Virus record (IMG/VR): IMGVR_UViG_3300029984_000008
Span: 1-64,000 of that record
Length of the DNA stretch: 64,000 bases
Strand: one strand, 5' to 3'
From: a virus
In this document: piece by piece, positions 25,905-54,931 of the stretch
Layout: every line of letters begins with the position of its first letter
Numbering within the stretch: position 1 is the first letter of the stretch
Notes under the pieces: generated by a model
The model's input: only the letters and a program-made list of their open reading frames with translations
The model's database searches: none
Told to the model about the DNA's origin: nothing
Position numbers and translations under genes: made by a program

Positions 25905-26075
25905 TATATCAAATATAAAACTTATAATTTAGGGAACTAGCATATGAATTACAGTGGCTTTCCATTTTAGGCACAGTAGCAGAATGTACTGAAAGGACAC
26001 ATATGCTGACCAGCTGTGCGGATAGCAAAACTTATTTCAATGCTAGCAAGCTCAAAGAAGCAGGGGGAAAACAAT

Positions 26076-29000
26076 ATGACAAAAGGAACAGACCAAAAGA
26101 GCGCAGAGACAAATAATGTAACAGATAACATAGCAGAGTTTAAATATGTAGATGCTTTTCATCAAAACCCAAAAACAGGGGATAGAACCAAATGGATAAG
26201 ACTTGAGGTAGGCGAAGCAATAGAGAAGTACAGAAGCCAGTGTAACAACTATAATGTATTTAATACAGTACAGCTATATAGGAATAAAGTAAGGCAAGCA
26301 GGCAATGAGCCGATGTATATGCCTTTATATTTTGACATAGACTCTAAGATGCTACTTGCAGCCGATTATACAACTACACCAGCTGCACCAGGGCTTATAG
26401 AGGCTGGCTGTGTAAAAGCAGCAGAGCTACAAGGAATACTACCAGCTGAGCTTTTAGCACATGTCAGCAATAGTGAAATGGGGATACCCTTAACACAGGA
26501 CACATGTACTAAAATCAATCAAGTAATAGACGCCTCTAACTTAAACGATTTTGTTTGGATAAGAAATCTAGAACAGAGTAGAGCAGACGCTGTTAAAATT
26601 ATAAGATTCTTTAGAGATAGGTTTGGTTTTACTGAGGATGAAATAAGAGTATACTTCAGTGGCTCTAAAGGATTTCACCTATTGGTTAATCCAGTAGTGC
26701 TCGGTATAAAACCTGATAAAAACCTACACAGAGTATATAAATTGATAGCAACCTATTTAGAAACACAGCTAGGCTTAAAATGTTTAGACACTGCCTCCAT
26801 ATATGGACATAGCCGCCAACTAAGGCTACAAAACTCAATACATTACAAATCAGGTCTCTTCAAAGTAGAGCTTACACCTGCAGAGCTTATGGGGGATATT
26901 AGAGATATAATTACTAATATAGCAAAATCCCCTAGAGGGGACATATACCCACCAGAACAAGTAGAGTATCAACTAAATGTAAAAGCTAATGAGTGGTACC
27001 TAACTAAAGTACAAGAATACACAGAGGCTAAAAGATTGGAAGATACCAGAGCTTCTATAACTGATGATGTGCTATCTAGTATGGAGAGTGTACCAACATG
27101 CGTACAATATGTACTAGACAAAGGTATCCTCAAAAATGGCGATAGAAACAAAGCTACAATGGCCCTAGCCTCCTATTATAAAGGTATAGGCACAACTGTA
27201 GGTGAAACTTGTGATATATTGACAGCCTGGGCTAAGAAAATACCAGCATCAATGACCTCTAGCTCAAGTACTGAGGTCGAAGCATCTACTATATCTTGTG
27301 TAAAAACAGTTTATCAGGAAGATAGGTATAAGTTCCACTGTGCATATATTAGAAGCTTGCACGGAGATAAGAACGGCCAAGGCTATGAAAATATACCATG
27401 TAGTGGTAGGGGCTGCCCTGCACACTCAGACCATGCTATAGAAGCAGAGCCAGCTGAGTTTATGCACCTATCACAAACAGGTAGGGCAGAGTATACAGGT
27501 AAGAAGGTAGCCTTTAATGCCTTAGTTAGTGGCAAGATGGATACACCTTATATAATACCAAGCAAGGTTAGATTTACATGTCACCATGAAGAAGATTGTC
27601 AAAAGCCTTGTATATTACATGACTACAGCGGAATGTATGAAAAGGAATTTCATGAAAATGACAGCTTTCTAATTGAGGCTACTAACCAAAATGCTACACA
27701 GCTAAAAGGTATATTAAGATATCATAGTGGAGCTAGCTGCACTAAAGTAGTTCACGAAGTTATAGACACAGTTAATATAAGTGAGCTGCTAGTAGTACCA
27801 ATGGCAGAGCGTATTAAGTCTGTGAAGACCTCTGAGGATGGCCCTATAGTAGATATAGATGAAAGCGGTAATGAATATGTTACACGTAAAATTTATGCTG
27901 TAGGGGATGACGTAAAGTCTAATAGTCACTATAGAATAGAGGGCTATGTATACCCACACCCAAAGAATAGAATGGCTACACTACTAAGTCAAGCGCAGGA
28001 GCCTCTACAAGATAGTGTTTCTAGGTTTGAGCTCACTGACGAAATAAAGGACAGCTTTAAAGTACTTCAAGTGCAGCCAGGAGAGACCCTAGACGATAGA
28101 ATAAGCTTAATTGTAGACGACCTAGTAAACAATGTCACCCTAGTAAGAGATAGGTTTGCACCACACTTAGCAGTGCTTTTAACTTACCACTCATGCTTGA
28201 ATTATTACTTTCAGGGGCAACTTGAAAAGAGAGGCTGGGTAGAAACTATTCTTGTAGGGGACAGCGGTCAGGCTAAGAGCCAATTGGTGTCAAATATTAT
28301 GGAATTTAGTGGCTTAGGTAGCTTAGCTTCAGGTGAAGGTGCCAGTCGTACAGGTCTTGTTTATAGATTGGACCAATTTGGTGACCGCTGGTTTATTACC
28401 TGGGGTAAGTACCCTTTATCTGATAGAAAACTTATTGCAATAGATGAGTTTTCAGAGCTAGACCCTGAAGACTTTGGAAAGATTACAGAGGCTAGAACCA
28501 CTGGGGTACTAAGAGTAGATAGGACAGTAAATGCAGAGACAAATGCCAGAGTAAGAACTATACTTATGACTAACCCAGCAAAAGCAAAAGAACTAAGTAG
28601 TTTTACTCATGGTGTGGAAGCACTGAAGCCCTTATTTGCCTCTCCAGCAGATATTAGAAGACTAGACCTAGCTGTATTTCTAGAGTCTGGGGACGTTTCA
28701 AAGGATGTATTAAATGCAGAGTATGAGAAATCAACTAAACAGCTAATAGACTCTACAGTATTTAGAGACTCAATACTGTGGGCCTGGAGCCGTAGTGCTA
28801 GTGATATAGAAATAGATAAGAAAACTATGAAGGCTATACTAGCAAAAGCCGAGTCTCTTGGTGAAAAGTATGGCTATTCAAAGGACGTACCGCTAATGGA
28901 ACCTGCAGACTTGCGTAAGAAAATAGCCAGACTAGCAATAGCTCTAGCTGCCTTAGTGCATTCTACAGATGAAACACATACTAAGGTTATAGTTAAAAAA

Positions 29001-29360
29001 GAGCATGTAGATGCAGTAGAAGATTTTATAACTATCATATATGATGATAACAACTGTAGGTTAGATGAATATTCCGCACGAAGTCGTGCAGAGTCTGAGC
29101 TTACAGATGAAGAGAGAGCTGAGGTATCTAAAGCATTAAAAGCCTTAGACTTTGGTGATAACGCTGCAGTATCTGCAGAAATATTAGCACTCTTCAGGAG
29201 AAATGACATATTGAAGCCTAACGAGATTATGGATATGTTAGGTTATGACCGTGCTCAGGTAACTGCTAGACTAGCTATATTAAATAAGCATAGCATGACA
29301 AAGAGCACCAGGTCAGGTCTTAAGAAGCTACCAAAGTTTATAGACTTTTTAATGCAATAA
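26076..29360 (+). CDS. AEP primase fused to MCM-like replicative helicase
   Basis: About 1094 residues; ATG at 26076 is preceded by CAGGGGGAAAAC, better than the upstream GTG. The N-terminal archaeo-eukaryotic primase domain has the metal motif FDIDS (Asp87, Asp89) and SGSKGFH (Lys198, His201). A Cys cluster (HCAY, CSGRGCPAH) follows, then a zinc/OB-like section (FTCHHEEDCQKPC). The C-terminal AAA+ domain is MCM-like: Walker A GDSGQAKS (Lys734), the SGEGASRTGLVY insert-helix region, Walker B IDEF (Asp790, Glu791), LMTNP sensor and an RRLDL arginine finger near residue 860, then a winged-helix tail. It should both prime and unwind. A similar fusion is known from a Bacillus cereus prophage element. 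Confidence 0.88.
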   Translation: MTKGTDQKSAETNNVTDNIAEFKYVDAFHQNPKTGDRTKWIRLEVGEAIEKYRSQCNNYNVFNTVQLYRNKVRQAGNEPMYMPLYFDIDSKMLLAADYTTTPAAPGLIEAGCVKAAELQGILPAELLAHVSNSEMGIPLTQDTCTKINQVIDASNLNDFVWIRNLEQSRADAVKIIRFFRDRFGFTEDEIRVYFSGSKGFHLLVNPVVLGIKPDKNLHRVYKLIATYLETQLGLKCLDTASIYGHSRQLRLQNSIHYKSGLFKVELTPAELMGDIRDIITNIAKSPRGDIYPPEQVEYQLNVKANEWYLTKVQEYTEAKRLEDTRASITDDVLSSMESVPTCVQYVLDKGILKNGDRNKATMALASYYKGIGTTVGETCDILTAWAKKIPASMTSSSSTEVEASTISCVKTVYQEDRYKFHCAYIRSLHGDKNGQGYENIPCSGRGCPAHSDHAIEAEPAEFMHLSQTGRAEYTGKKVAFNALVSGKMDTPYIIPSKVRFTCHHEEDCQKPCILHDYSGMYEKEFHENDSFLIEATNQNATQLKGILRYHSGASCTKVVHEVIDTVNISELLVVPMAERIKSVKTSEDGPIVDIDESGNEYVTRKIYAVGDDVKSNSHYRIEGYVYPHPKNRMATLLSQAQEPLQDSVSRFELTDEIKDSFKVLQVQPGETLDDRISLIVDDLVNNVTLVRDRFAPHLAVLLTYHSCLNYYFQGQLEKRGWVETILVGDSGQAKSQLVSNIMEFSGLGSLASGEGASRTGLVYRLDQFGDRWFITWGKYPLSDRKLIAIDEFSELDPEDFGKITEARTTGVLRVDRTVNAETNARVRTILMTNPAKAKELSSFTHGVEALKPLFASPADIRRLDLAVFLESGDVSKDVLNAEYEKSTKQLIDSTVFRDSILWAWSRSASDIEIDKKTMKAILAKAESLGEKYGYSKDVPLMEPADLRKKIARLAIALAALVHSTDETHTKVIVKKEHVDAVEDFITIIYDDNNCRLDEYSARSRAESELTDEERAEVSKALKALDFGDNAAVSAEILALFRRNDILKPNEIMDMLGYDRAQVTARLAILNKHSMTKSTRSGLKKLPKFIDFLMQ

Positions 29361-30181: not shown

Positions 30182-30712
30182 ATGGGAAATTTATCAATGC
30201 TAAAAAAGAAAATAGAAGACCAGAAAAATAAAAAGCCAACTAATAATGATATAGATGCTGGTACAGGCATCGGAATTACGCGTAAGAGGACGCCTGTGCA
30301 ATTAAAAGAGGTTACCGAGGCCAATTTATCGACCACTATAGTGGCACCTCTTAAAAAGGCTGTAAAGCCTATTGTAAAAGCAGTGGCCTCTACAGGTGGA
30401 TTGCCTGAAAGTGGCTACCATATTATAAGTAGAAATGAACCTGAGAAGCTTGAGCTTCTAAGACAGCATATAATAAAAGGGGGCATATGTGCCCTAGACT
30501 ATGAAACAGACGGGGACCCAGATGATGAAGCACAGGACCCACAAGACCATCATTTAACTATGGTGTCATTTGCCTATAAGGTGGGTCAAGCTTTCTGTAT
30601 GCCTTTGGCTATGGATAGCTATGGAGCTAATTGGAACCTAGACGAATTTATAAAGGACTTTATGAAGCCTATAATGGAAGACCCTAATATTTTATTGGTC
30701 ATCCACAACGTT
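30182..30712 (+). CDS. DNA polymerase family A, exon 1 (3'-5' exonuclease N-terminus)
   Basis: The first 177 codons of a DNA polymerase that continues at 31496 after a group I intron; joined protein about 883 residues. A Lys-rich N-terminus is followed by the proofreading exonuclease domain with motif I DYETDG (Asp106, Glu108). The exon ends at base 30712 within motif II: joining gives VIHNV then KAEHEW, matching the HN-x-K-x-E pattern of phage polymerases. Without splicing the frame stops at 30724, just inside the intron. Confidence 0.85.
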
Positions 30713-31495
30713 AGACATAATTGATGTTGTAAAACCCCTCTCACAACGGTGAATCCTAAGTTGAAAGATAAGGTAACGCCGTGTCTACAGTAATGGTGAC
30801 ATTAGCTGGGATGTAACGACTGATACGAGCCTTTGCAGGGCAAGTAGAGAAGTGATGTAAAAAATAAATTAAAGTAGGTGATATGATGATATGTACTAAA
30901 TGTGGAGCAGATAAGACACCTGAAGAGTTTGCTACTTTCTTAGTTAAAGGCGAAAGACGCTTAAGAGGTCATTGTAAAGTCTGTGAAAAAGATTATAAAC
31001 ATGCATGGAGAGAAAAGAATATAGAAAAGTGTTTAGCTCACTCTAGGGAATGGAGAGAGCAAGACCCTGAGGCATATAAAGCGTATTTAAAGCAAAACTA
31101 TAAAGAGCATAAAGATGAGCGCATAGCTAAAGAGAAGGTCAGGCTTAGCACACCTGAAGGAAAGGCCAGGCGTAATGCTAATTCAAGAAAATATAGGCGC
31201 ACAGCGGAGGGCAAGCTGAAGGAGAATACCAGAGCTAAAGTTAATGCAGCTATTAAGTATGGTAAGCTAGTAAAGCCCACTAATTGCACTATATGTGGTA
31301 AAGAATGTAATACTGAAGCCCACCATGTAGACTACAATAAACCTTTTGAAATTACATGGTTATGCAAGCAGTGTCACGAGAATATACATCACTTAAATGA
31401 GGGGCAAGAGTCCTAGGGGGTAACTGCAAACAAACCTCCTGCAAAAGGGTTCTTGAAGGCATAGTCTGTGCCACTAGAAATAGTGGAATTACATG
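30713..31495 (+). ncRNA. group I self-splicing intron in polymerase gene
   Basis: The 783-nt intron keeps frame. Splice sites are set by P1: exon bases 30705-30712 (ACAACGTT) pair with the guide 30723-30730 (GATGTTGT), ending in the diagnostic U-G pair at 30712/30723. The intron ends in G (31495). P7 strands are likely in AACGACTGATACG (near 30805-30820) and GGCATAGTCTGTGCC (31458-31472). The HNH gene lies between them, in the P8 region. Splicing restores the exonuclease motif II. Confidence 0.85.
30883..31416 (+). CDS. intron-encoded HNH homing endonuclease
   Basis: 177-residue protein inside the intron. N-terminal zinc finger CTKCG...HCKVCEKDY, a long basic helical linker, then a C-terminal HNH domain with NCTICGKEC, EAHHVDY and WLCKQCHENIHH. 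It would cut intronless polymerase alleles at the insertion site and spread the intron. AGTAGGTGAT precedes the ATG. Confidence 0.88.
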   Translation: MMICTKCGADKTPEEFATFLVKGERRLRGHCKVCEKDYKHAWREKNIEKCLAHSREWREQDPEAYKAYLKQNYKEHKDERIAKEKVRLSTPEGKARRNANSRKYRRTAEGKLKENTRAKVNAAIKYGKLVKPTNCTICGKECNTEAHHVDYNKPFEITWLCKQCHENIHHLNEGQES

Positions 31496-33616
31496 AAAGC
31501 AGAGCATGAGTGGTCAATGTTATATGGAATTGATATGTTTGACAAAGCCTGCAATGGTAAGGTAATGGATACTATGATAATGGTAAAAGCTGCAGCATTA
31601 GATGAGAATATAGTGCCTATGAATGATGGTTATGAAGTCCAAGTAGGGCTAAAGCCAGCAACTAAGGCTCTGCTAGCTGATAAAGATGGTATGGTACACG
31701 GCCTTATACACGTAGATGATATAAAGAGTTTTAAAGAGACAGTAGGCAAGCATAACTGGGAAGAACCTACAGGTGAGTTTTATAAGTCAGGTCCTAACAA
31801 AGGGCTGCCTAAAACTAAGAAGTTCTCACGAAGCAGAACATTTAATGAGCTACCTATAACTCAGGAAATTATAGACTACAGCTGCTCAGATAGTGACTGG
31901 GCACTTGGGATATACTATAAGCTCTTACCTATACTAATAGCTGAAGGTATGATGGAAGTAATAACAGAGATAGACATACCTAGAATGATGGTATTAGGTG
32001 AGTATGAGCTTGCTGGTTGGAAAATAAATCCTAATAAGCTTATAGCTATGGGGCATATAGCCGACAGAGCCTTAAAAGGTGAATATGATGATGCAGGGAC
32101 CCTAATAAAAGAGGGGCTTGAAGCTAAGCTACAAGAAGTATTAGTTGAAGTCACCAGGGGCTATGCAGACATGAAAGAGGACGGCCAGGTAATAGTACCA
32201 GCAGGTAGCTACGACATGGGAAAATGGAAAGGTGACCCTACTATACTAAAAATATCGACACCGAGACCCTTTACCTGGGGAAGCACACAGCATTTAGCAT
32301 GGCTATTTTTCCACGTGCTTAAGGTATCCACTGCAGGCCTTGATAGGTCTAAGACCACAGGGATGCCTGCAACAGGTAAAAAGAATATAGATGCTATCAT
32401 AGAGAGCTATGAAGCGAGCAGCGATAATAAATTTATGAAAGTTTTAAATGAGAAAAGAAAATATGATAAAATTAAAAGCACTTACGTGGGAAGCTATGAT
32501 GATGAATCTGGTAAATATGTAGGGGGTATGCTTCAGTTCTGTAGAGCAGATACGCATAAGCTGCATACATGCCTAAACCTAGTAAACACATGGAGGCTAG
32601 CGTCTAAGAAACCAAATCTTCAGAACATACCTCGTGCTGATAATGACCCGATGGGTATACGTGGTGTATTTGAAGCTCCAGACTATGACCCTAAGAAGGA
32701 CTACAGCGGCCTCAGAAGCCCTTTGACTAGACCTACAGTATATATAAATACTAATAAACTATCAGGCAAAACTGTCTGGGTAGGCGCTGATTATTCACAA
32801 GTAGAATTAAAAGTGCTAGCCTGGTATGCAGGAGAGCAAGGTATGATAGATGTATTAGCTCACGGAGGCGACTTACACGCGAAAGCTGCACTAGATGTAT
32901 TTAAGCTACCTTGTAAACTTGAAGAAGTGGCAAAATTATACAAGCCAGCCAGGTATAGAGCTAAAAAGGTAAACTTTGGATTAGTTTATGGAATGACAGA
33001 ATATGGATTATCAGCTGACCCTAAGATGTGTATGACTGTGGACGAGGCTAAAAACTTTATAGCTCAGTACATGGCTACTTATCCAGGGGTTAGACAGTAC
33101 CAACATGACCTTATAGCATATGCTAGACAACACGGTTACGTTGAGACTATGTTTGGCCACCGAAGACCTATACCTGAAATAAATAGTCCCAATAAGTGGC
33201 TAAGAAAAAAAGGTGAAAATAAAGCAATGAACACACCTATTCAGGGCTCAGCGGCTGATATTATAGCTGCAGCTATGGTAAACCTAAGAAGAGAAGCACC
33301 TAAGTGGCTAAAGCCAGTTATACAAATACATGATGAATTAATGTGTGAGACACCAGTAGAGTATGCTATAGAAGGTTGCAAGATATTACAGTCTATTATG
33401 GAAAGACCAGTAGACGGCTTCAGTGATATAATGCCTCTAATAGCAGAGCCTTCAGTGGGTAAGATATGGAGCCACGCGCTAGACTTAAAGCATGATGAAC
33501 ACGGGGCACCATATGTACACCCTAAGGAAACTCGTAAAGAAGCTACAGACGTAACTTACGACGATATTAAACCTGATATGCACCTATTTAAGTTAGCAGG
33601 GATTGAGGTGCGTTGA
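31496..33616 (+). CDS. DNA polymerase family A, exon 2 (exonuclease remainder and polymerase)
   Basis: 706 residues completing the polymerase. Residue numbers are for the joined protein. Palm motif A is ADYSQVELKVLAWYAGE (catalytic Asp609), finger motif B is RYRAKKVNFGLVYG (Arg, Lys and Tyr of the O helix), motif C is QIHDE (His789, Asp790, Glu791). All three are intact, so this should be the phage replicative polymerase. The ATG at 31493 is the intron end, not a start: there is no ribosome site. Confidence 0.9.
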   Translation, partial: KAEHEWSMLYGIDMFDKACNGKVMDTMIMVKAAALDENIVPMNDGYEVQVGLKPATKALLADKDGMVHGLIHVDDIKSFKETVGKHNWEEPTGEFYKSGPNKGLPKTKKFSRSRTFNELPITQEIIDYSCSDSDWALGIYYKLLPILIAEGMMEVITEIDIPRMMVLGEYELAGWKINPNKLIAMGHIADRALKGEYDDAGTLIKEGLEAKLQEVLVEVTRGYADMKEDGQVIVPAGSYDMGKWKGDPTILKISTPRPFTWGSTQHLAWLFFHVLKVSTAGLDRSKTTGMPATGKKNIDAIIESYEASSDNKFMKVLNEKRKYDKIKSTYVGSYDDESGKYVGGMLQFCRADTHKLHTCLNLVNTWRLASKKPNLQNIPRADNDPMGIRGVFEAPDYDPKKDYSGLRSPLTRPTVYINTNKLSGKTVWVGADYSQVELKVLAWYAGEQGMIDVLAHGGDLHAKAALDVFKLPCKLEEVAKLYKPARYRAKKVNFGLVYGMTEYGLSADPKMCMTVDEAKNFIAQYMATYPGVRQYQHDLIAYARQHGYVETMFGHRRPIPEINSPNKWLRKKGENKAMNTPIQGSAADIIAAAMVNLRREAPKWLKPVIQIHDELMCETPVEYAIEGCKILQSIMERPVDGFSDIMPLIAEPSVGKIWSHALDLKHDEHGAPYVHPKETRKEATDVTYDDIKPDMHLFKLAGIEVR

Positions 33617-44320: not shown

Positions 44321-44701
44321 ATGAATAAAGTAAGGATGACCAGAAAAAATAACGGTAAATGTATACAGTGTGGTCAACCATTGGATAGGGAGGGTATATA
44401 TTGTGCTGCATGCAACAGCTATAATAATAAAAATAGTAGAAAGCATGTGCATGAGCTGCATGAGCAGGGGATATGTAGTACTTGCAGAAAGCCTCTGGAG
44501 GCAGGTAGAAAAACCTTACTGTGTGGGCCTTGTGCAGCTAAGCTAAGACTCCGAGCAAGAATGGTAACGGCAGAACGCAGAGAAAAACATTTATGTGTAC
44601 AGTGTGGGGCACCAGCTGATGGAAGGTCACAGTGTCGCAGATGTTTGGACATGGTAATAGAAAGACGTAGAAAAGCATTAAATTTAGAGTTGAGGTGGTA
44701 A
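44321..44701 (+). CDS. triple zinc-ribbon protein, paralogue of the gene at 46073
   Basis: 126 residues with three consecutive metal sites: CIQCGQPLDREGIYCAAC, CSTCRKPLEAGRKTLLCGPC and CVQCGAPADGRSQCRRC, linked by basic helices (NSYNNKNSRKHVHEL). The layout and wording repeat in the gene at 46073, so one arose by duplication. Basic linkers suggest nucleic-acid binding. Related domains occur beside HNH nucleases, but no HNH core is present here. Confidence 0.6.
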   Translation: MNKVRMTRKNNGKCIQCGQPLDREGIYCAACNSYNNKNSRKHVHELHEQGICSTCRKPLEAGRKTLLCGPCAAKLRLRARMVTAERREKHLCVQCGAPADGRSQCRRCLDMVIERRRKALNLELRW

Positions 44702-44925: not shown

Positions 44926-44947
44926 TCGGGAAACGTAAATTTCCCGA
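44926..44947 (+). terminator. hairpin, possible attenuator
   Basis: TCGGGAAA (44926-44933) pairs perfectly with TTTCCCGA (44940-44947) over CGTAAA; followed by AATTTCG, so the T-run is poor. It lies 50 bp before the ClpX-type zinc domain gene. Confidence 0.5.
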
Positions 44948-44998
44948 AATTTCGACACTAAATGTAAGTATAGCGAATTGAGTTTAAGGGGTGATTAT

Positions 44999-45154
44999 AT
45001 GAAAGTATGCAGTTTTTGTGGTAAAACTGAAAAACAAGCAAAGAGAATAATAACATCTACAAATGCTGATATATGCGATGAATGTATTTTAGTTTGTCTT
45101 GATATTCTTATTAAATCCCAAGCAGAATACAAAGAAATAGCATTTAAAAAGTAA
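44999..45154 (+). CDS. free-standing ClpX-type zinc-binding domain
   Basis: 51 residues: VCSFCGK near the start, then DICDEC and VCLDIL. This is the pattern of the ClpX N-terminal zinc-binding domain (CSFCGK, ICDEC, C-x-x-II) and covers the whole domain with no AAA+ part. All four zinc cysteines (4, 7, 26, 29) are present. In ClpX this domain dimerises and binds adaptors and some substrates. A phage copy could compete for adaptors, insert into ClpX dimers, or recruit ClpXP. ATG 44999 follows AAGGGGTGATT, good spacing. The gene lies in a cluster of small zinc proteins. Confidence 0.8.
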   Translation: MKVCSFCGKTEKQAKRIITSTNADICDECILVCLDILIKSQAEYKEIAFKK

Positions 45155-45171: not shown

Positions 45172-45357
45172 ATGGGAAAATATGAAATGAGAAAATGCAA
45201 AAGTTGTGGTAAAGACTTTGAGCCAAAAAGAAAAAATCAAGTTAATTGTACAGCAGAGTGTCCTATGCTATTCGGTGGTGGGGTAACAAGAAAAGGTAAG
45301 ACAACTACTGTAAAAGGTGCTTTAAATTGCTATATGTATATGAAAGGGTGGTTATAA
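45172..45357 (+). CDS. small zinc-finger protein
   Basis: 61 residues: CKSCGKDFEPKRKNQVNCTAEC is a typical C-x2-C...C-x3-C ribbon (residues 9-30), with a basic tail. Family unknown; binding to nucleic acid or protein is possible. GAGAGGGTGAAGAG site. Confidence 0.55.
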   Translation: MGKYEMRKCKSCGKDFEPKRKNQVNCTAECPMLFGGGVTRKGKTTTVKGALNCYMYMKGWL

Positions 45358-46063: not shown

Positions 46064-46072
46064 TTGGGAAAT

Positions 46073-46453
46073 ATGACGATAGATTATCGTAAGGCGAATG
46101 GGCTATGTATAAAGTGTGGAGAACTTTTGGATAGAAAAGGCACGTATTGTGTGGATTGTTGTAAGTATCTGAGAGCAGAGCATAAGTTGCAATTAATACG
46201 GTTACGAGCAAAAGGGCTATGCACAGCTTGTGGAAAACCAGTAGACCGTGATGGGTCAGTGTGCTCTAGTTGTGTAGCTAAATATAGTCAGATGCAAAAA
46301 GATAGAATAGCTGAGCGTAAGGCAAATGGCCAATGTGCTCAGTGTGGGGTTAAGAATACTAATGGTAGAATTAGATGCGAGACATGTCTAGCCTGGCACA
46401 GGATAGCTGCAAAAGCGTCAAGAGAAGAGAAAAGAAAAAGCATTAAAAACTAG
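46073..46453 (+). CDS. triple zinc-ribbon protein, paralogue of the gene at 44321
   Basis: About 126 residues with CIKCGELLDRKGTYCVDC, CTACGKPVDRDGSVCSSC and CAQCGVKNTNGRIRCETC, matching the three-site layout at 44321. TTG 46064 is an alternative start; neither has a strong ribosome site. Likely a duplicate with nucleic-acid-binding potential. Confidence 0.58.
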   Translation: MTIDYRKANGLCIKCGELLDRKGTYCVDCCKYLRAEHKLQLIRLRAKGLCTACGKPVDRDGSVCSSCVAKYSQMQKDRIAERKANGQCAQCGVKNTNGRIRCETCLAWHRIAAKASREEKRKSIKN

Positions 46454-48509: not shown

Positions 48510-48560
48510 GAAGAAAAGCCCGTAGCCTCTACACTATAGTAGAGACACGGGCTTTTCTTC
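48510..48560. terminator. bidirectional terminator between convergent operons
   Basis: GAAGAAAAGCCCGT (48510-48523) pairs with ACGGGCTTTTCTTC (48547-48560), with an inner CTCTAC/GTAGAG stem. A-run and T-run on both sides serve both strands. The last codons of the leftward gene lie within it. Confidence 0.85.
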
Positions 48561-49451
48561 TTTTCCATACCATATGCTACCCAGTGGATTTATCTCTACT
48601 TCATCTTTTGAAGCAAAGAGCCACTGAAGGTCTGTATTATCTATTCCGTATATACAGTCTCTTAGTACCAGGGCCCTAGCTTTTGTAGGGGCAACGGTTA
48701 GCACTAAAGGAAAACTTCCATAGGTAGCCTCAAAGGTTCCTGAGCCATAGAAAGCTGCATATCTTTTATGCTTACGCTGGAATACTTGCGGTGTCATAGT
48801 CCCATTGTCCCACTCTAAAAAGAAGTGAAAGCCTTCATCTTCAGAGAACCAATACTGGCCGTAGGCATCTGGATTGCATATCATACGCTCGCCCCAGAAC
48901 TTAAAACTATGCCTACAGTGGTTCTCTGTTCTGAAGCCAGTTACCTCATGACCTAGCTCTCTAGCTTTTCTAAGCAAGTAGAGATAGAAGTTATTAGTAT
49001 CTACCATGTGCTCTAGGTACGGAAGTCTAGCCTCATTCATTTCATAGGACCAGGAAATATCTTCTATCTTTTGGCCTAGCATACCAGCGACTACCTTAGC
49101 ACCTAATTCATCTAGGACCACGTGCCCCTGTGAGCTGCCTTCATTTCCTACGTCAACAAAGAACCTGTCTACTATACGGTTATCAAATAATTTTCTAATC
49201 CTACGTCTTGCTATGAGTTCTGCTTGTGTATTTTCTTTGCCTCTGAAGCTATACTTATAGTGCATTTCAGCTATTTGCCTAGTGGTGAGGCAGCGCTGAT
49301 AGTAGAGAGACAGCAGCATTTCTTTATCTCTAGGGGTTAGACTAGCTTTTTGAAGAGCTTCAGGGGTACTACGACTCACCTCTGTATACTTACGACTAAA
49401 CTTAGATATTCTGCGACTAGTTATACACCTAGCCTTTTCTTTATCGTCCAC
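48534..49451 (-). CDS. replication-relaxation family protein
   Basis: 305 residues from GTG 49451 with AAGGAGG upstream. N-terminal helix-turn-helix (LTPRDKEMLLSLYYQRCLTT, RQIAEMHY), a RRIRKLFDNRIVDRF winged part, and FHFFLEWDNGTMTPQVFQRK plus HKRYAAF, matching the plasmid replication-relaxation family. Such genes sit next to TraG-like ATPases in Gram-positive plasmids and integrative elements and are thought to act at a transfer or replication origin. Here it follows that ATPase, the same arrangement. Confidence 0.75.
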   Translation of the reverse strand: MDDKEKARCITSRRISKFSRKYTEVSRSTPEALQKASLTPRDKEMLLSLYYQRCLTTRQIAEMHYKYSFRGKENTQAELIARRRIRKLFDNRIVDRFFVDVGNEGSSQGHVVLDELGAKVVAGMLGQKIEDISWSYEMNEARLPYLEHMVDTNNFYLYLLRKARELGHEVTGFRTENHCRHSFKFWGERMICNPDAYGQYWFSEDEGFHFFLEWDNGTMTPQVFQRKHKRYAAFYGSGTFEATYGSFPLVLTVAPTKARALVLRDCIYGIDNTDLQWLFASKDEVEINPLGSIWYGKEEKPVSLL

Positions 49452-49464
49452 TTTTTTAACCTCC

Positions 49465-51993
49465 TTATTTTTTCTTTTTAATGCGTCCTGTGGCCTTACC
49501 TATTTTCACAGGAGCACTGTCATCCTCTGTAATCTGGTTCTTTTGAGTTAAGCTATATCTTTCTTGTATATCATCTTTAATCTGGTCTAGCCTCATATAG
49601 TTCTTTTTCTTATACTGCTCTTTCCACGCTTGCACTTCCTTAAGTCTAGTAGCCTCTGCAACTACTCTGCCTTTATCATCTACATATGGAAAATAGACAT
49701 TCATATCTAAATTGTCAAATGTGAAGGGATTAGGGTGAATCTTTTTAAACCTACCATAGCCAGTATACTGAATCATAGAGGTCAGGTCGTCCTCTGTTAC
49801 GCCAGGGAACATTCTTTTAATCTTAGTGGCTGAAGAGGTACCAATGAGTAGACTAATTTGAGTAAAGGTATTATCCTCTATCATACCCATAAGCTGTGCT
49901 GGAATCTGCTCTACGCTCTGATGAGCCATGATTAAGCCTAGGCCGTAACTTCTAGCCAGCTCAAGGAACTTTTGTATATCCTCTGACTGATTAATGAATA
50001 GTTCAAACTCATCCATGAATAGTATATGAGGTACACGGTCCTTAACTGGTATATCACCTCTAGAGAATATTCCATTAGATACAAGGGCTGTGAAAAGTGT
50101 ACCAAAAAAGGACACTATTTCTGTGGTATTTTTATCCATAGCATAATTAACTATAATTATAGCTTTTTCATCTAATAATTTACGCCAGTCGAATAAATTA
50201 GCCCTTTGACACATACTATAGCGAGGTAGCTCATTTTGTGTAATAATTTCAAGTTTATTTAATATAGCCTTAGCTTCATTTTGTCGAGCCTTTGGTGTCA
50301 TATGAGCATAGCTCAGCCAGTAACTGAGGACGTCAGGAAAGTCTGTGTGGTCCTGCATCTTTTCAATAGTGTGTATTAGGTAGTCTTCATCTGTGAACAT
50401 ACGATATACTTCGAGGATAGAACCCTCTTCATTAGTAGATATAACAGCTATAAGAGCTCTCCTTAGTATACTTTGGCTGTGCTCTTTTATAGAGCCTTCA
50501 GAGTTTAATTTTAGGAATACACTTACTATCATAGTTGCTAGGTTATAAGTGCTCATGCCTGGCTGTCTTAGAAAATTGATAGGCATAAACATTGTTAGGT
50601 CCTGCATATCTATATACTGTATGCGGTTCCACTCAGACTTAGGTAAGTGGGCCATAAGGTCATCTGCTACGTCTCCCTTTACATCAAAGAATGTCATGCC
50701 GCAAAATCTAGTAATCTGAAGAGCTATAAATGATAACCAGTAGCTCTTACCTGAGCCTGTACCTCCTATACAGTAGACATGCTGCATTAGCATCTTAAGG
50801 TCCTTAAAAGCTAGGTATTTTTGTCTACCTCTGAAGTTAGACATTCCGAATACTATAGCTTTATCTGCCCATGCCTCTTCAATAGTGTTATATTGATATA
50901 CACCGTCTGGTACTGCCATTTTCTTAGCTCGGAGTCTTATTACACCTGGAATGTTTTTGGAGGGAAAGTGGAGCACTGTGGCGAGTTCTGGAGGGGTCAC
51001 ATAGTTTTCTGTAGGGTAGACTGCAATGCTTCTATCTGAATATTCTTTCAGAAATTTACTCACTTGAGTTATATTAAATATCTTAAGCCAGGGCCTCTTC
51101 ACTGTCTGCTTATAGACTTCACGGTAGTTTGTATAAGCTCTAAATCTATTTTTATCGGTGGCTGGTGCAAAGGCGCTTATTACAGTATTTAATCTAGCCC
51201 TACCTTTTTTAAAGTCTGGGTTATAACAAACTGCCCTAATATTGAGGTCAAAATATACACCAGCTTCCAGCTTTTTCTGAATACTGGAGAGACTGGTGTT
51301 ATGGTCTTTAGCTCCTGAATTACCCACTACTGCATACTTTAATGCGCCTACCAGAGCTTTTGGTGATTCTAATAAGCCCGTCCACTTAGTGTAAGGCTGG
51401 TGTAATTTAGAAGGTCTGGAGCTTGTCTTTTTATATATTTCATAATAGCTACTGGCTATAGTAAGTGCTCTGAAGTTGATAGGGCGTAGTGTAAACTGCA
51501 CCCATACCTCTTCATTATCATCTAAATTTTGCATACTAGCACAGAGGCTAGCCACCATGTCAGCACCTACACGCTCACCGTCACTCTGTAGTAGATTAAA
51601 TATATAATGACTATCAAGGTCCAGGGTAGCACAGGCACTTTTTACAGCGGTTATACTACCAGGTTTGGCGTAGTCTTTATTTGCATCTATTGCTACTATC
51701 TCTGCAGCTGGGTGGATTGAGTTTATATTAGACTGTAAAAATTCCTGTGTAACATTATCTGATAGCCATGCGTAGAGGCTTATACCTTTAGCTGTCCCTT
51801 GAAACTCAAAGGTTAGCCAGGTATAAGGATTTTTAGAATTATATATAGTGTAGAGGCTATCGAATAGGTTGTTATACTGTGAAGGTTTAAACTCTGCATC
51901 TTTCTCTATATAAATCTGGTAGAGGTGGCCACCTTCAGAGGCCTTTCTTAATTTATTTCTACAGTAAGGGTACATTAATGATTTAATTATCAT
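49465..51993 (-). CDS. TraG/VirD4-like coupling ATPase
   Basis: 842 residues. Walker A GGTGSGKS near residue 414, FFDVKGDVADDLM, Walker B-type HILFMDEFELF and IMAHQS sensor show a TraG/VirD4/HerA-type ring ATPase. Residues 1-400 are beta-rich with no clear membrane span, like the large N-terminal domain of coupling ATPases that pair with replication-relaxation proteins. It would pump DNA or protein through a membrane pore. Membrane anchors are probably supplied by the two small proteins encoded just upstream. AGGAGG precedes the ATG. Confidence 0.8.
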   Translation of the reverse strand: MIIKSLMYPYCRNKLRKASEGGHLYQIYIEKDAEFKPSQYNNLFDSLYTIYNSKNPYTWLTFEFQGTAKGISLYAWLSDNVTQEFLQSNINSIHPAAEIVAIDANKDYAKPGSITAVKSACATLDLDSHYIFNLLQSDGERVGADMVASLCASMQNLDDNEEVWVQFTLRPINFRALTIASSYYEIYKKTSSRPSKLHQPYTKWTGLLESPKALVGALKYAVVGNSGAKDHNTSLSSIQKKLEAGVYFDLNIRAVCYNPDFKKGRARLNTVISAFAPATDKNRFRAYTNYREVYKQTVKRPWLKIFNITQVSKFLKEYSDRSIAVYPTENYVTPPELATVLHFPSKNIPGVIRLRAKKMAVPDGVYQYNTIEEAWADKAIVFGMSNFRGRQKYLAFKDLKMLMQHVYCIGGTGSGKSYWLSFIALQITRFCGMTFFDVKGDVADDLMAHLPKSEWNRIQYIDMQDLTMFMPINFLRQPGMSTYNLATMIVSVFLKLNSEGSIKEHSQSILRRALIAVISTNEEGSILEVYRMFTDEDYLIHTIEKMQDHTDFPDVLSYWLSYAHMTPKARQNEAKAILNKLEIITQNELPRYSMCQRANLFDWRKLLDEKAIIIVNYAMDKNTTEIVSFFGTLFTALVSNGIFSRGDIPVKDRVPHILFMDEFELFINQSEDIQKFLELARSYGLGLIMAHQSVEQIPAQLMGMIEDNTFTQISLLIGTSSATKIKRMFPGVTEDDLTSMIQYTGYGRFKKIHPNPFTFDNLDMNVYFPYVDDKGRVVAEATRLKEVQAWKEQYKKKNYMRLDQIKDDIQERYSLTQKNQITEDDSAPVKIGKATGRIKKKK

Positions 51994-52009
51994 AATAGTC
52001 TGTGCCTCC

Positions 52010-52201
52010 TTATATTAGCGCTTTTACAGCTTCCCAAATATGGGTAACTAGGTCTGTAGCTAATTTTCCGCTACCAATGTAGTCCCGTAGTAAGAATAGT
52101 ATTTTTGTTACGAAGATAACTGTTACACCTGTATATGTGGTTACTAGAGTCCATTTAATTATAAAACCTTCAACTTCTGTGTGCTTTTGAGCATCATACA
52201 T
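52010..52201 (-). CDS. small membrane protein of the TraG-like operon
   Basis: 63 residues. One long hydrophobic span (TTYTGVTVIFVTKILFLL) with polar ends. AGGAGGTGTTGGC before ATG. Probably the membrane partner of the ATPase. No family recognised; pilin-like proteins have similar size. Confidence 0.5.
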   Translation of the reverse strand: MYDAQKHTEVEGFIIKWTLVTTYTGVTVIFVTKILFLLRDYIGSGKLATDLVTHIWEAVKALI

Positions 52202-52212
52202 GCCAACACCTC

Positions 52213-52779
52213 CTACATATTAAGCATAGTGCTTATTGACTGATAGATAGTAGTGAATAGACCTATTACTTCCTTGAGTATAATTGCACCGCCTACAAAG
52301 GATACTAGAGGTATAAAATCACCACGGCCTGTAAACTTTAAGAAGCTGCATACTACTAGAGTAATAAATCCTATAATTAGCATATGAAGCAGTATAGCCC
52401 CTTGACCTGAGAAGAAGTTACCTCCACCTTCAGCGTATACTTCAATTGCGTCGCCACCGTATTTATTGTAGGCTACAATTTTTTGTAGAAATTCTCCTGG
52501 ATGTAGTTTAAATAAACCAAAACTAAATGCAGGTACCCCTATCATAATAGCAGCTGTGATTTTTTTATTATTCATGAACCAGCGGATAAAATGTCTGCTA
52601 TTTACTATAGCTGAAATATCCTCTGTAGAGGCTGTAGGAAATACTGTTTTACATGTTACTATGTCATCTACAACGCCCCTTCGACCTAGTTTAAATACCT
52701 CTGACATAGTAGTACCAGGCATTAGCTCCTTTATAGTATTTAGTTCACTAAATTTTACTGAATAGCTGTTGTTTAACAT
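52213..52779 (-). CDS. multi-pass membrane protein of the TraG-like operon
   Basis: 188 residues. Soluble N-terminus of about 80 residues, then about three hydrophobic spans (ITAAIMIGVPAFSFGLF, AILLHMLIIGFITLVVC, FVGGAIILKEVIGLF). First gene of the leftward operon, after AGGAGAGGATTTAG. A transfer-channel part is inferred from context only. Confidence 0.5.
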   Translation of the reverse strand: MLNNSYSVKFSELNTIKELMPGTTMSEVFKLGRRGVVDDIVTCKTVFPTASTEDISAIVNSRHFIRWFMNNKKITAAIMIGVPAFSFGLFKLHPGEFLQKIVAYNKYGGDAIEVYAEGGGNFFSGQGAILLHMLIIGFITLVVCSFLKFTGRGDFIPLVSFVGGAIILKEVIGLFTTIYQSISTMLNM

Positions 52780-52810
52780 CTAAATCCTCTCCTATATGTT
52801 TTTGTTGTAT

Positions 52811-52827
52811 CAGGGTATATTACCCTG
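52811..52827 (-). promoter_or_regulatory. palindrome in leader of the TraG-like operon
   Basis: CAGGGTA-TAT-TACCCTG is a perfect 7-bp inverted repeat about 30 bp before the first gene on the - strand. A candidate operator or leader hairpin. A TTCACA / TAATTT pair further upstream may be the promoter. Confidence 0.5.
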
Positions 52828-52914
52828 TATTCCTACTAATAAATTATGCTGTTTTACAAAATGTGTGAATATTTTTACTGTACTTGAAGGTGTATTGGCT
52901 ATGAATAATACATA

Positions 52915-52961
52915 AAAAGAACACAGCAAGCGCCTAAATAGCTGCATTTGCTGTGTTCTTA
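52915..52961 (-). terminator. terminator for the partition operon
   Basis: AAGAACACAGCAA (52918-52930) pairs with TTGCTGTGTTCTT (52948-52960), with T-runs on the - strand side. It ends the ParM-ParR-YdjM unit. Confidence 0.8.
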
Positions 52962-52996
52962 ATCAATGTGACTTATTTCTATTTTTTATTTTTCTT

Positions 52997-53419
52997 TTAC
53001 CATATTTTAATAAGAAATTTGTGTCTCTTCATTGCGGAACTTAGTTTGTCACCAAATAAATGTGATAAGCCGCCTATAACTACCATATAATACATATCTG
53101 TTCCTTTTATTGTATCTGTAGTTAATAGTAAGAAAGGTATTGATATTATTAGTAGGCCAACTATACTATGACAATGTCCTCTGTGTTTCATAAATGGTGT
53201 AAATGGATTATATCGCCCTAGTGTACTATTTCTCTGGTCAATATCTGGTAATAAGCTGCCTATAAGTACTGCCATGAATAATACTGGACTATGCGCTATA
53301 AAGTAAGCTACTATGGAACCTATGACCAAATGTCCTGTATAATTGAAGATAACACACCTTCCTTCTATCTCTCTTATTTCTCTACTATTAGTATGTGCAT
53401 TTCTAGCTTTTATATGCAC
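52997..53419 (-). CDS. YdjM-family membrane-bound metal-dependent hydrolase-like protein
   Basis: About 140 residues. GSLLPDIDQRNSTLGR and MKHRGHCHSIVGLL carry the Asp/His motifs of the YdjM (DUF457) family, with about four hydrophobic spans. The substrate is unknown in the family. The start is unclear: GTG 53419 lacks a ribosome site, while GAAGGAAGGTG lies 60 bp inside, without an in-frame ATG nearby. Ends near the partition operon terminator. Confidence 0.65.
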   Translation of the reverse strand: MHIKARNAHTNSREIREIEGRCVIFNYTGHLVIGSIVAYFIAHSPVLFMAVLIGSLLPDIDQRNSTLGRYNPFTPFMKHRGHCHSIVGLLIISIPFLLLTTDTIKGTDMYYMVVIGGLSHLFGDKLSSAMKRHKFLIKIW

Positions 53420-53435
53420 GGTAAATAATGGAATT

Positions 53436-53873
53436 TTAAAAATTATTGCCTAATAGCCTACTCTTCACTGAGCTTCTTAGCTGCTCTTTATCCTTATTCT
53501 TAGCTAGGGGGCTTGGCTTAACTGTAGGCTCTGGGAAGTTCTGCCAAAAAAAGTCCTCTCTCTTATGTTCTTCTTTTACCTCTTCAGGTGTATTAACTAC
53601 TTTCTCCTCTTCCTGTATGTTGTTAGCTACTACTAGTTTATCTATTTGACGCTGTGGTAGCACCTCTGTGGCTACTTGAGTCTCTGTTGCTGCTCTGTCT
53701 ATTTGATGCTGTGTTAAAGCACCTGGGTACTTTTGTTGCTCTATAGCAAGCACCCTACGATATACCTCTTTAAGCCTGCTTGTCCTATCTTTGTATTTGT
53801 CTAGGTCCTTTATTATATCAGCATCTGTATTTGGATTAAGTCGAAAACCAACTGGTTTACTAATCATAGCCAT
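53436..53873 (-). CDS. parR: ParR-like DNA-binding adaptor of actin-type partition
   Basis: 145 residues. N-terminal KPVGFRLNPNTDADIIKDLD followed by SRLKEVYRRVLAIEQ fits the ribbon-helix-helix StbB/ParR group. The C-terminal 90 residues are charged and disordered, as expected for the part that meets the filament. Begins one base after the ParM stop, so the two are cotranslated. ParR binds the centromere and the filament end. Confidence 0.75.
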   Translation of the reverse strand: MAMISKPVGFRLNPNTDADIIKDLDKYKDRTSRLKEVYRRVLAIEQQKYPGALTQHQIDRAATETQVATEVLPQRQIDKLVVANNIQEEEKVVNTPEEVKEEHKREDFFWQNFPEPTVKPSPLAKNKDKEQLRSSVKSRLLGNNF

Positions 53874-53874
53874 C

Positions 53875-54909
53875 TTATATCAATCCTTCCTTAATCTTTA
53901 GCATTCCATATTTCCTATAGCCACTGGCGTTAGAGTACTCAGGCTCGTCTAACTTTATAACGGGGATGCCTGTAAGCTCTACTAGATAGTCATAGTAGAG
54001 GTTTGCGCCACCTCCACATATTAGTATAGCTGAGAACCTTCTGAAGTCTGGAACCCATACACTAAGCTCCTGAGCAAGCTCTGGGAATACCTGGTCTATT
54101 GCTTGCTTGCATAAGTCAGCAACGTCTGTGCTAACACCTCCGAGTTTAACTAGTCCTGTTCTTAGGACCTCATCAACTTTATAAGGGGGTATAGCGTACT
54201 TATGCTTCTTAAGCACAAGCTTCCTAAGCTCATTTTGTACTTTATGAACGCCGTGCTGTATAGTGAAGCTATCCTGGCTGAAGCTTGCAGCCTCCATGAT
54301 ACAACCATCTGTAGTCTTTCCACCGAGGTCAAGCACTAGCACATCCTCTGAGGCTAATTCTATGTGGTCCATGTTCTCAGTGCCATCTTCATTTAATACA
54401 AAGTCAAAGAACGCCCCAGCGGACTGTGGGAGAGTAAGAGACCTTTTAACTTGCACAAACTTCTCACTATCACCAAAACCAAACTTGAAGTCACCTTTAA
54501 GCCTCTCCGTAAAGTTATCCCTTATCTCATCTACCATAAACTCTTCTACGGGTAAGCCGCTAACTATTAAGTCTATAACACTCTTTCCAGTCTCCTCATT
54601 GTAGAGGCCTAGCATTGCAAGCATCTTCGGTGTATCGCTCTGAGATACTAGACGCTCTGCGTTAAAGTCATATGAACCCTTAGCACCTACATTCCATACA
54701 CCTACCTGGTCTGTTATGATATAGCCCTCTGAGTCTGCTAAACCTGAAACTACGACCTCCGAACGTCTCTTTACTATGCTAGCAAATTTACAGCTCCAGT
54801 GAGCTGCTACTGCCTTACCTTGGGTATAGCCTAGGTCAATTGCTAATACTTCTGGGTCCACTGTAATTGCTGGTTTTAGATTTGTTTTCTTGATTGCTGT
54901 ATTTGTCAT
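53875..54909 (-). CDS. parM: ParM/StbA-like actin ATPase for plasmid segregation
   Basis: About 344 residues from ATG 54909 (AGGAG at good spacing; GTG 54915 is less likely). Actin-fold motifs: phosphate 1 VLAIDLGYTQGK, phosphate 2 LVLDLGGKTTDG, adenosine AILICGGGANLYY. ParM filaments push sister replicons apart. With ParR downstream and repeated sites upstream, the full partition set is present. A tubulin-like PhuZ is not seen here, so this is a plasmid-type system. Confidence 0.85.
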   Translation of the reverse strand: MTNTAIKKTNLKPAITVDPEVLAIDLGYTQGKAVAAHWSCKFASIVKRRSEVVVSGLADSEGYIITDQVGVWNVGAKGSYDFNAERLVSQSDTPKMLAMLGLYNEETGKSVIDLIVSGLPVEEFMVDEIRDNFTERLKGDFKFGFGDSEKFVQVKRSLTLPQSAGAFFDFVLNEDGTENMDHIELASEDVLVLDLGGKTTDGCIMEAASFSQDSFTIQHGVHKVQNELRKLVLKKHKYAIPPYKVDEVLRTGLVKLGGVSTDVADLCKQAIDQVFPELAQELSVWVPDFRRFSAILICGGGANLYYDYLVELTGIPVIKLDEPEYSNASGYRKYGMLKIKEGLI

Positions 54910-54931
54910 TTTCACTGCTCCTATTCCTTTA

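What the first reader, a model, noticed from the sequence alone, without database searches (positions are those of the whole stretch)
44999..45154. Stand-alone ClpX zinc-binding domain encoded by a phage
The 51-residue product copies the ClpX N-terminal zinc domain almost completely (CSFCGK, ICDEC, C-x-DI) and nothing else. In ClpX this domain mediates dimerisation and adaptor or substrate choice. A free copy could inhibit, redirect or bait host ClpXP. I know of no well-described phage system based on it.
Basis: partly seen in the sequence, partly recalled or inferred. Interest (0 to 1): 0.82.

Follow-up and report, generated by a model that had tools for sequence, protein, structure and literature searches.

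The report
Phage-encoded lone ClpX zinc domain
A phage carries a 51-residue gene that is just the zinc-binding "hand" with which the bacterial protease motor ClpX picks up proteins; many unrelated phages carry such a lone copy, it is kept by selection, and what it does has apparently not been tested.

Summary
Window 44999-45154 (+) encodes an intact 51-aa protein with a good ribosome-binding site. Residues 3-37 match PF06689 (zf-C4_ClpX) at E 3.8e-13, far over the curated cut-off. The AlphaFold model matches E. coli ClpX ZBD crystal structures (0.7-0.9 A over 37-39 residues) much better than any other treble clef. Neither a second PF06689 match nor ClpP is in the record. The gene is not a decayed stump: lone ZBDs occur in many unrelated phages and prophages (71 of 80 viral loci retrieved; 12 of 12 records checked hold exactly one, stand-alone), and prophage copies evolve under purifying selection. 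In 148 genomes of one bacterial class the hits were ClpX-sized, so the lone form looks phage-borne.

It is not a new kind: NCBI already names such proteins "ClpX C4-type zinc finger protein" and PHROGs holds four matching families. I found no paper that assigns a function. Best reading: a host-directed mimic of the ClpX N-domain that competes for adaptors/substrates or pairs with host ClpX and so retunes ClpXP (about 0.45). Adaptor-pocket residues F16 and I46 are kept, but the aromatic at position 34 is Asp. Interaction with ClpX is untested; a ClpX-independent zinc module is the main rival.

The parts
44999..45154 (+). 51-aa stand-alone ClpX-type zinc-binding domain protein (P0001)
   Evidence: PF06689 E 3.8e-13; PDB sequence hits only to ClpX; AF2 pLDDT 88 and Foldseek hits to 2ds5-2ds8 and 1ovx
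45005..45109 (+). zf-C4_ClpX domain proper (residues 3-37)
44986..44993 (+). Shine-Dalgarno-like AAGGGGTG
   Evidence: read directly from sequence
44926..44949 (.). Hairpin (TCGGGAAA...TTTCCCGA) between the upstream gene and this one; the scan calls it terminator-like on the minus strand only
   Evidence: number found is not above shuffles
45172..45357 (+). Downstream neighbour: 61-aa protein with a weak match to the NinG N-terminal zinc region
   Evidence: PF05766 E 5e-4, below cut-off; phrog_171 E 2.9e-5

Best explanation
[quoted passage not shown] Shown: the sequence signature and predicted fold of ClpX's ZBD, with no AAA+ engine, kept as a stand-alone gene by selection in many phages. Inferred: during infection it occupies the partners of the ClpX N-domain (adaptors such as SspB/RssB-type proteins, trigger factor, N-domain-dependent substrates), or pairs with ClpX's own ZBDs, and so weakens or redirects N-domain-dependent ClpXP degradation while leaving tag-only degradation largely untouched. 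The likely benefit is protection of phage proteins or a change in which host or phage regulators are degraded.
For: PF06689 at 49.5 bits; the solved-structure search hits only ClpX; the AF2 model matches ClpX ZBD crystals at 0.7-0.9 A with probability 1.0, while generic treble clefs (LIM, GATA) stay below 0.45. PMC7804408: ZBD dimers are the binding hotspot for trigger factor, SspB, RssB and lambda O; F16 and I46 lie in the hydrophobic pocket; ZBD dose changes lambda O degradation. Both residues are kept here (F6, I36), and position 46 is I/V/L/M/F in 36 of 39 lone ZBDs (position 46 was not in the search pattern). PMC3983244: occupying this site with the SspB-tail peptide blocks FtsZ and lambda O degradation, so a competitor at this interface would have an effect. 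Lone copies occur in unrelated phages, one per record and without ClpX; purifying selection (dN about 0.2 with dS at or above 1). In E. coli prophages the gene is next to the repressor on the integrase side, an early-region position. Phage targeting of a Clp unfoldase N-domain has precedent in SPO1 Gp53-ClpC (PMC6873191).
Against: No interaction was shown. Position 34, usually aromatic in ClpX, is Asp here and in the two nearest relatives, and G30-P31 are changed to S-T, so some of the ClpX surface is not conserved. Lone ZBDs are more hydrophobic at position 44 than ClpX (8 of 11 against 3 of 14; seen post hoc, small), which may mean a different partner. In Pseudomonas phages the gene lies in a nin-like region beside a DksA/TraR-type zinc protein, and here among other small zinc proteins, a context that fits nucleic-acid or transcription roles as well. 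Whether the lone domain dimerises, or can exchange into ClpX's ZBD dimers, is unknown.
Confidence: 0.45

Rival explanations
1. The ZBD fold has been reused as a general small zinc module that binds nucleic acid or some other phage or host protein, for example in transcription or replication, with no link to host ClpX.
For: Context among small zinc-ribbon proteins in the window and beside DksA/TraR, NinB and NinG in Pseudomonas phages; changed positions 30, 31 and 34; more hydrophobic position 44 in lone ZBDs.
Against: The fold match is specific to ClpX ZBD, not to treble clefs at large; pocket residues F16 and I46 kept; no charged nucleic-acid-binding tail common to the family.
Confidence: 0.3
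2. It is a delivery adaptor: the ZBD pairs with ClpX's ZBD and the variable tail brings a chosen host or phage protein to ClpXP, rather than blocking it.
For: Tails and N-terminal extensions vary strongly among lone ZBDs, as expected for variable cargo; SPO1 Gp53 is adaptor-like.
Against: In the window protein only about 13 residues lie beyond the domain, and the model makes them a helix of lower confidence; that is little room for a cargo site.
Confidence: 0.12
3. A recently captured or decayed fragment of host clpX without function.
For: The gene is much more AT-rich than its surroundings (26.9% G+C, lowest 1.3% of the window), consistent with recent acquisition of the gene.
Against: Intact start, stop and RBS; it groups with other phage lone ZBDs rather than with ClpX (local support 0.82 on few columns); purifying selection in relatives; same design in unrelated phages.
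Confidence: 0.05

Closest known systems
[quoted passage not shown] PDB 1OVX, 2DS5-2DS8)
   Same: Cys4 treble clef, CSFCGK...ICDEC...C motif, F16 and I46 pocket residues, predicted fold within 0.7-0.9 A of the crystal structures
   Different: No AAA+ domain; about 10 residues shorter at the N-terminus than E. coli ClpX; Y34 to D24 and GP to ST
NCBI 'ClpX C4-type zinc finger protein' (e.g. WP_001083098.1 in E. coli prophages) and phrog_12435, 5259, 20296, 6797
   Same: Stand-alone ZBD of 60-120 aa in phages and prophages; the window gene is one more member
   Different: Low sequence identity (about 35-59%); shorter than most; other gene neighbourhoods
Moorella phage MTATph1 CDS0150 (annotated 'protease')
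   Same: 58 aa, begins MKVCSFCGK, shares the ADIC signature before the second CxxC, 59% identical over 39 residues; no other PF06689 match in that complete genome
   Different: Longer charged tail; lies beside a DHH phosphoesterase. The 'protease' label is unfounded
SPO1 Gp53 (adaptor-like modulator of ClpC)
   Same: Small phage protein that modulates a Clp protease through the unfoldase's N-domain, the kind of effect proposed here
   Different: No sequence link; acts on ClpC; experimentally shown, unlike here

Membership tests
zf-C4_ClpX domain family (PF06689) | Profile match over the curated cut-off | tested here: met
   49.5 bits against 27, positions 2-37 of 39
zf-C4_ClpX domain family (PF06689) | Four zinc-ligand cysteines (CxxC...CxxC) and treble-clef fold | tested here: met
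   C4, C7, C26, C29; AF2/Foldseek match to 2ds5-2ds8. Zinc binding itself not measured
ClpX (NF003745 / TIGR00382) | AAA+ ATPase domain with Walker motifs; whole-protein score over cut-off | tested here: not met
   34.8 bits against a cut-off of 359, residues 2-43 only; the ORF ends at 51 aa
Stand-alone phage ClpX-ZBD proteins ('ClpX C4-type zinc finger protein') | Single ZBD, no AAA+, encoded in a phage or prophage | tested here: met
   12 of 12 phage records likewise
Functional ClpX-N-domain mimic | Adaptor/substrate pocket residues F16 and I46 | tested here: met
   F6 and I36 by alignment against the residues named in PMC7804408
Functional ClpX-N-domain mimic | Dimerises, binds ClpX or its adaptors, alters ClpXP | not testable with these tools
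   Needs complex prediction or biochemistry
Known anti-phage defence proteins | PADLOC model match | tested here: not met
   No family for P0001

The most novel reading that the evidence does not exclude
Lone ClpX zinc domains are a widespread, phage-specific family of host-takeover proteins that hijack the N-domain interface of host ClpXP, acquired or reduced more than once from ClpX, and constitute an undescribed class of phage proteolysis modulators.
Probability: 0.35. Interest if true: 0.72.

Novelty: new member of a known kind. Interest (0 to 1): 0.48.

Why it matters
ClpXP controls lambda O, Mu proteins and many stress regulators, so a small phage protein shaped like its substrate-picking domain is a plausible lever on the host. 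The family is broad, tiny and easy to express, with ready E. coli prophage members, so the question is directly testable; such a protein could also serve as a tool for switching off only the N-domain-dependent part of ClpXP. As a single gene it is another member of an annotated but apparently unstudied family.

Tried and rejected
Decayed clpX remnant: rejected. Partner of a phage ClpP or phage ClpX: neither is in the record. Generic zinc-ribbon resemblance: rejected by fold and sequence specificity. Defence system component: no PADLOC match. A shared neighbour gene across phages that would point to function: none beyond related temperate phages. IQ-TREE run failed, then timed out; FastTree on about 35 columns gives only weak support. 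The excess of hydrophobic residues at position 44 in the full set was partly an artefact of the search pattern; it persists in the unbiased subset, but that is small. Literature searches for a phage lone ClpX ZBD found nothing; the library holds only open-licence papers, so this is weak evidence of absence. Host of the phage: not identified; the best DNA polymerase and RNR relatives are at most about 40% identical.

Full report
Observation. The ORF at 44999-45154 (+) is real and as described: MKVCSFCGKTEKQAKRIITSTNADICDECILVCLDILIKSQAEYKEIAFKK, with AAGGGGTG just before the ATG. An in-frame TTG at 44978 would add seven residues, but the ATG has the better ribosome-binding site. PF06689 (zf-C4_ClpX) matches residues 3-37 at E 3.8e-13. 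NCBI's ClpX models match only their first ~50 positions, so it is not ClpX. Among all PDB sequences only ClpX chains are hit. An AF2 model on 36 viral sequences has block-mean pLDDT of 93-96 for residues 1-40. Its closest PDB structures are ClpX and its ZBD (2ds5-2ds8, 1ovx; 0.7-0.9 A for the crystals), with a clear gap to LIM, GATA and other treble clefs.

Alone in the genome. The 71.8-kb virus record has one PF06689 match and no ClpP. A second contig of the same phage (80 kb, identical over the region compared) has the same single copy. Both may be incomplete.

Relatives. tblastn finds 40 phage records with similar stretches. Some are full ClpX in jumbo phages (phage G gp258, next to a ClpP-like gene). 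Others are stand-alone: Moorella phage MTATph1, Salmonella phage F1055, Caulobacter phage Cr30, Pseudomonas phage PP9W2. An alignment-based scan of viral contigs gave 166 loci; of the 80 kept, 71 have open frames under 200 aa with a lone ZBD and 9 are ClpX-sized. The scan pattern came from lone ZBDs, so 71 of 80 is not an unbiased rate. In 12 phage records searched whole, two of them deposited as complete genomes, each has exactly one copy and it is stand-alone. By contrast, 148 genomes drawn from the class of a Clostridia MAG gave only frames of 302 aa or more, apart from one match cut by a contig end. In E. coli 130 of 5426 complete genomes carry relatives of one lone-ZBD gene, in the two examples examined inside prophages, and RefSeq names it 'ClpX C4-type zinc finger protein'.

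Selection and origin. Among enterobacterial prophage copies the ZBD codons show dN about 0.16-0.27 with dS around 1 or saturated, and 0.04-0.08 against 0.35-0.47 for close pairs: purifying selection on the stand-alone form. Window against L003: pS 0.58, pN 0.25. A FastTree of ~35 columns puts the window gene with nine other phage lone ZBDs (L003, MTATph1 and the enterobacterial group; local support 0.82) before any ClpX, and needs about ten lone/ClpX changes overall against 22 for shuffled labels. The resolution is low: 'a phage lineage, perhaps with several captures' is as far as it goes. The gene's 26.9% G+C is among the lowest 1.3% of the window.

Function. From PMC7804408 and PMC3983244: the ClpX ZBD forms dimers, is needed for lambda O and FtsZ degradation and for adaptor delivery, and binds trigger factor, SspB, RssB and lambda O at a hydrophobic pocket that includes F16 and I46. 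A peptide that occupies the site inhibits these substrates, and changing the number of ZBDs per hexamer changes lambda O degradation. The window protein keeps F16 (F6) and I46 (I36). F16 is part of the search pattern and so uninformative in the family set; I46 is not, and is hydrophobic (I/V/L/M/F) in 36 of 39 lone ZBDs. It loses the aromatic at 34 (Asp) and the GP turn. This supports a ClpX-N-domain mimic with an altered surface. I commit to 'competitor or partner of the ClpX N-domain interface' at 0.45, with a ClpX-independent module at 0.30. The precedent for a phage protein acting on a Clp unfoldase N-domain is SPO1 Gp53 (PMC6873191).

Context. In the window the gene stands among small genes, several of them zinc proteins: two paralogous multi-CxxC proteins at 44321-44701 and 46064-46453 (38% identical) and a NinG-N-like protein directly downstream. 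In E. coli prophages it is near the repressor, on the repressor's strand and on the integrase side, i.e. where early leftward operons begin (the operon reading is inference). In PP9W2 it sits after a DksA/TraR-like gene and shortly before NinB. No neighbour recurs across unrelated phages.

Novelty. The kind is known at annotation level (Pfam, PHROGs, RefSeq), and the individual gene is a new, divergent member. No functional description was found in the open-licence library, with the limits that implies.

Noticed in passing
window 44321-44701 and 46064-46453 (+): Two paralogous proteins (38% identical over 103 aa) made of repeated CxxC zinc-ribbon-like units, flanking the ClpX-ZBD gene region.
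   Followed up: partly
window 45172-45357 (+): 61-aa protein resembling only the N-terminal zinc part of NinG, i.e. a second possible stand-alone zinc domain right after the ClpX ZBD gene.
   Followed up: partly
window 48534-54915 (-): Plasmid-like block on the minus strand: Replic_Relax, a T4SS-coupling-type ATPase (PF02534; also matches PADLOC mad8), a YdjM-like membrane protein and an actin-like ParM/ALP segregation protein, inside a tailed-phage genome; suggests a phage-plasmid.
   Followed up: partly
window 26016-29360 (+): 1114-aa fusion of an archaeo-eukaryotic-primase-like N-terminal part (weak, below cut-off) and an MCM helicase domain, probably the phage's replication protein.
   Followed up: partly
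window 30182-33616 (+): Family A DNA polymerase gene split in two ORFs with an ORF between them that looks like an HNH homing endonuclease (30883-31416; by eye, no Pfam match); no Rfam intron match at gathering threshold.
   Followed up: partly
OR602862.1 CDS0150 (L005) and phrog_12435: Lone ClpX ZBDs annotated as 'protease' in phage records; the label is misleading because no catalytic or ATPase domain is present.
   Followed up: yes
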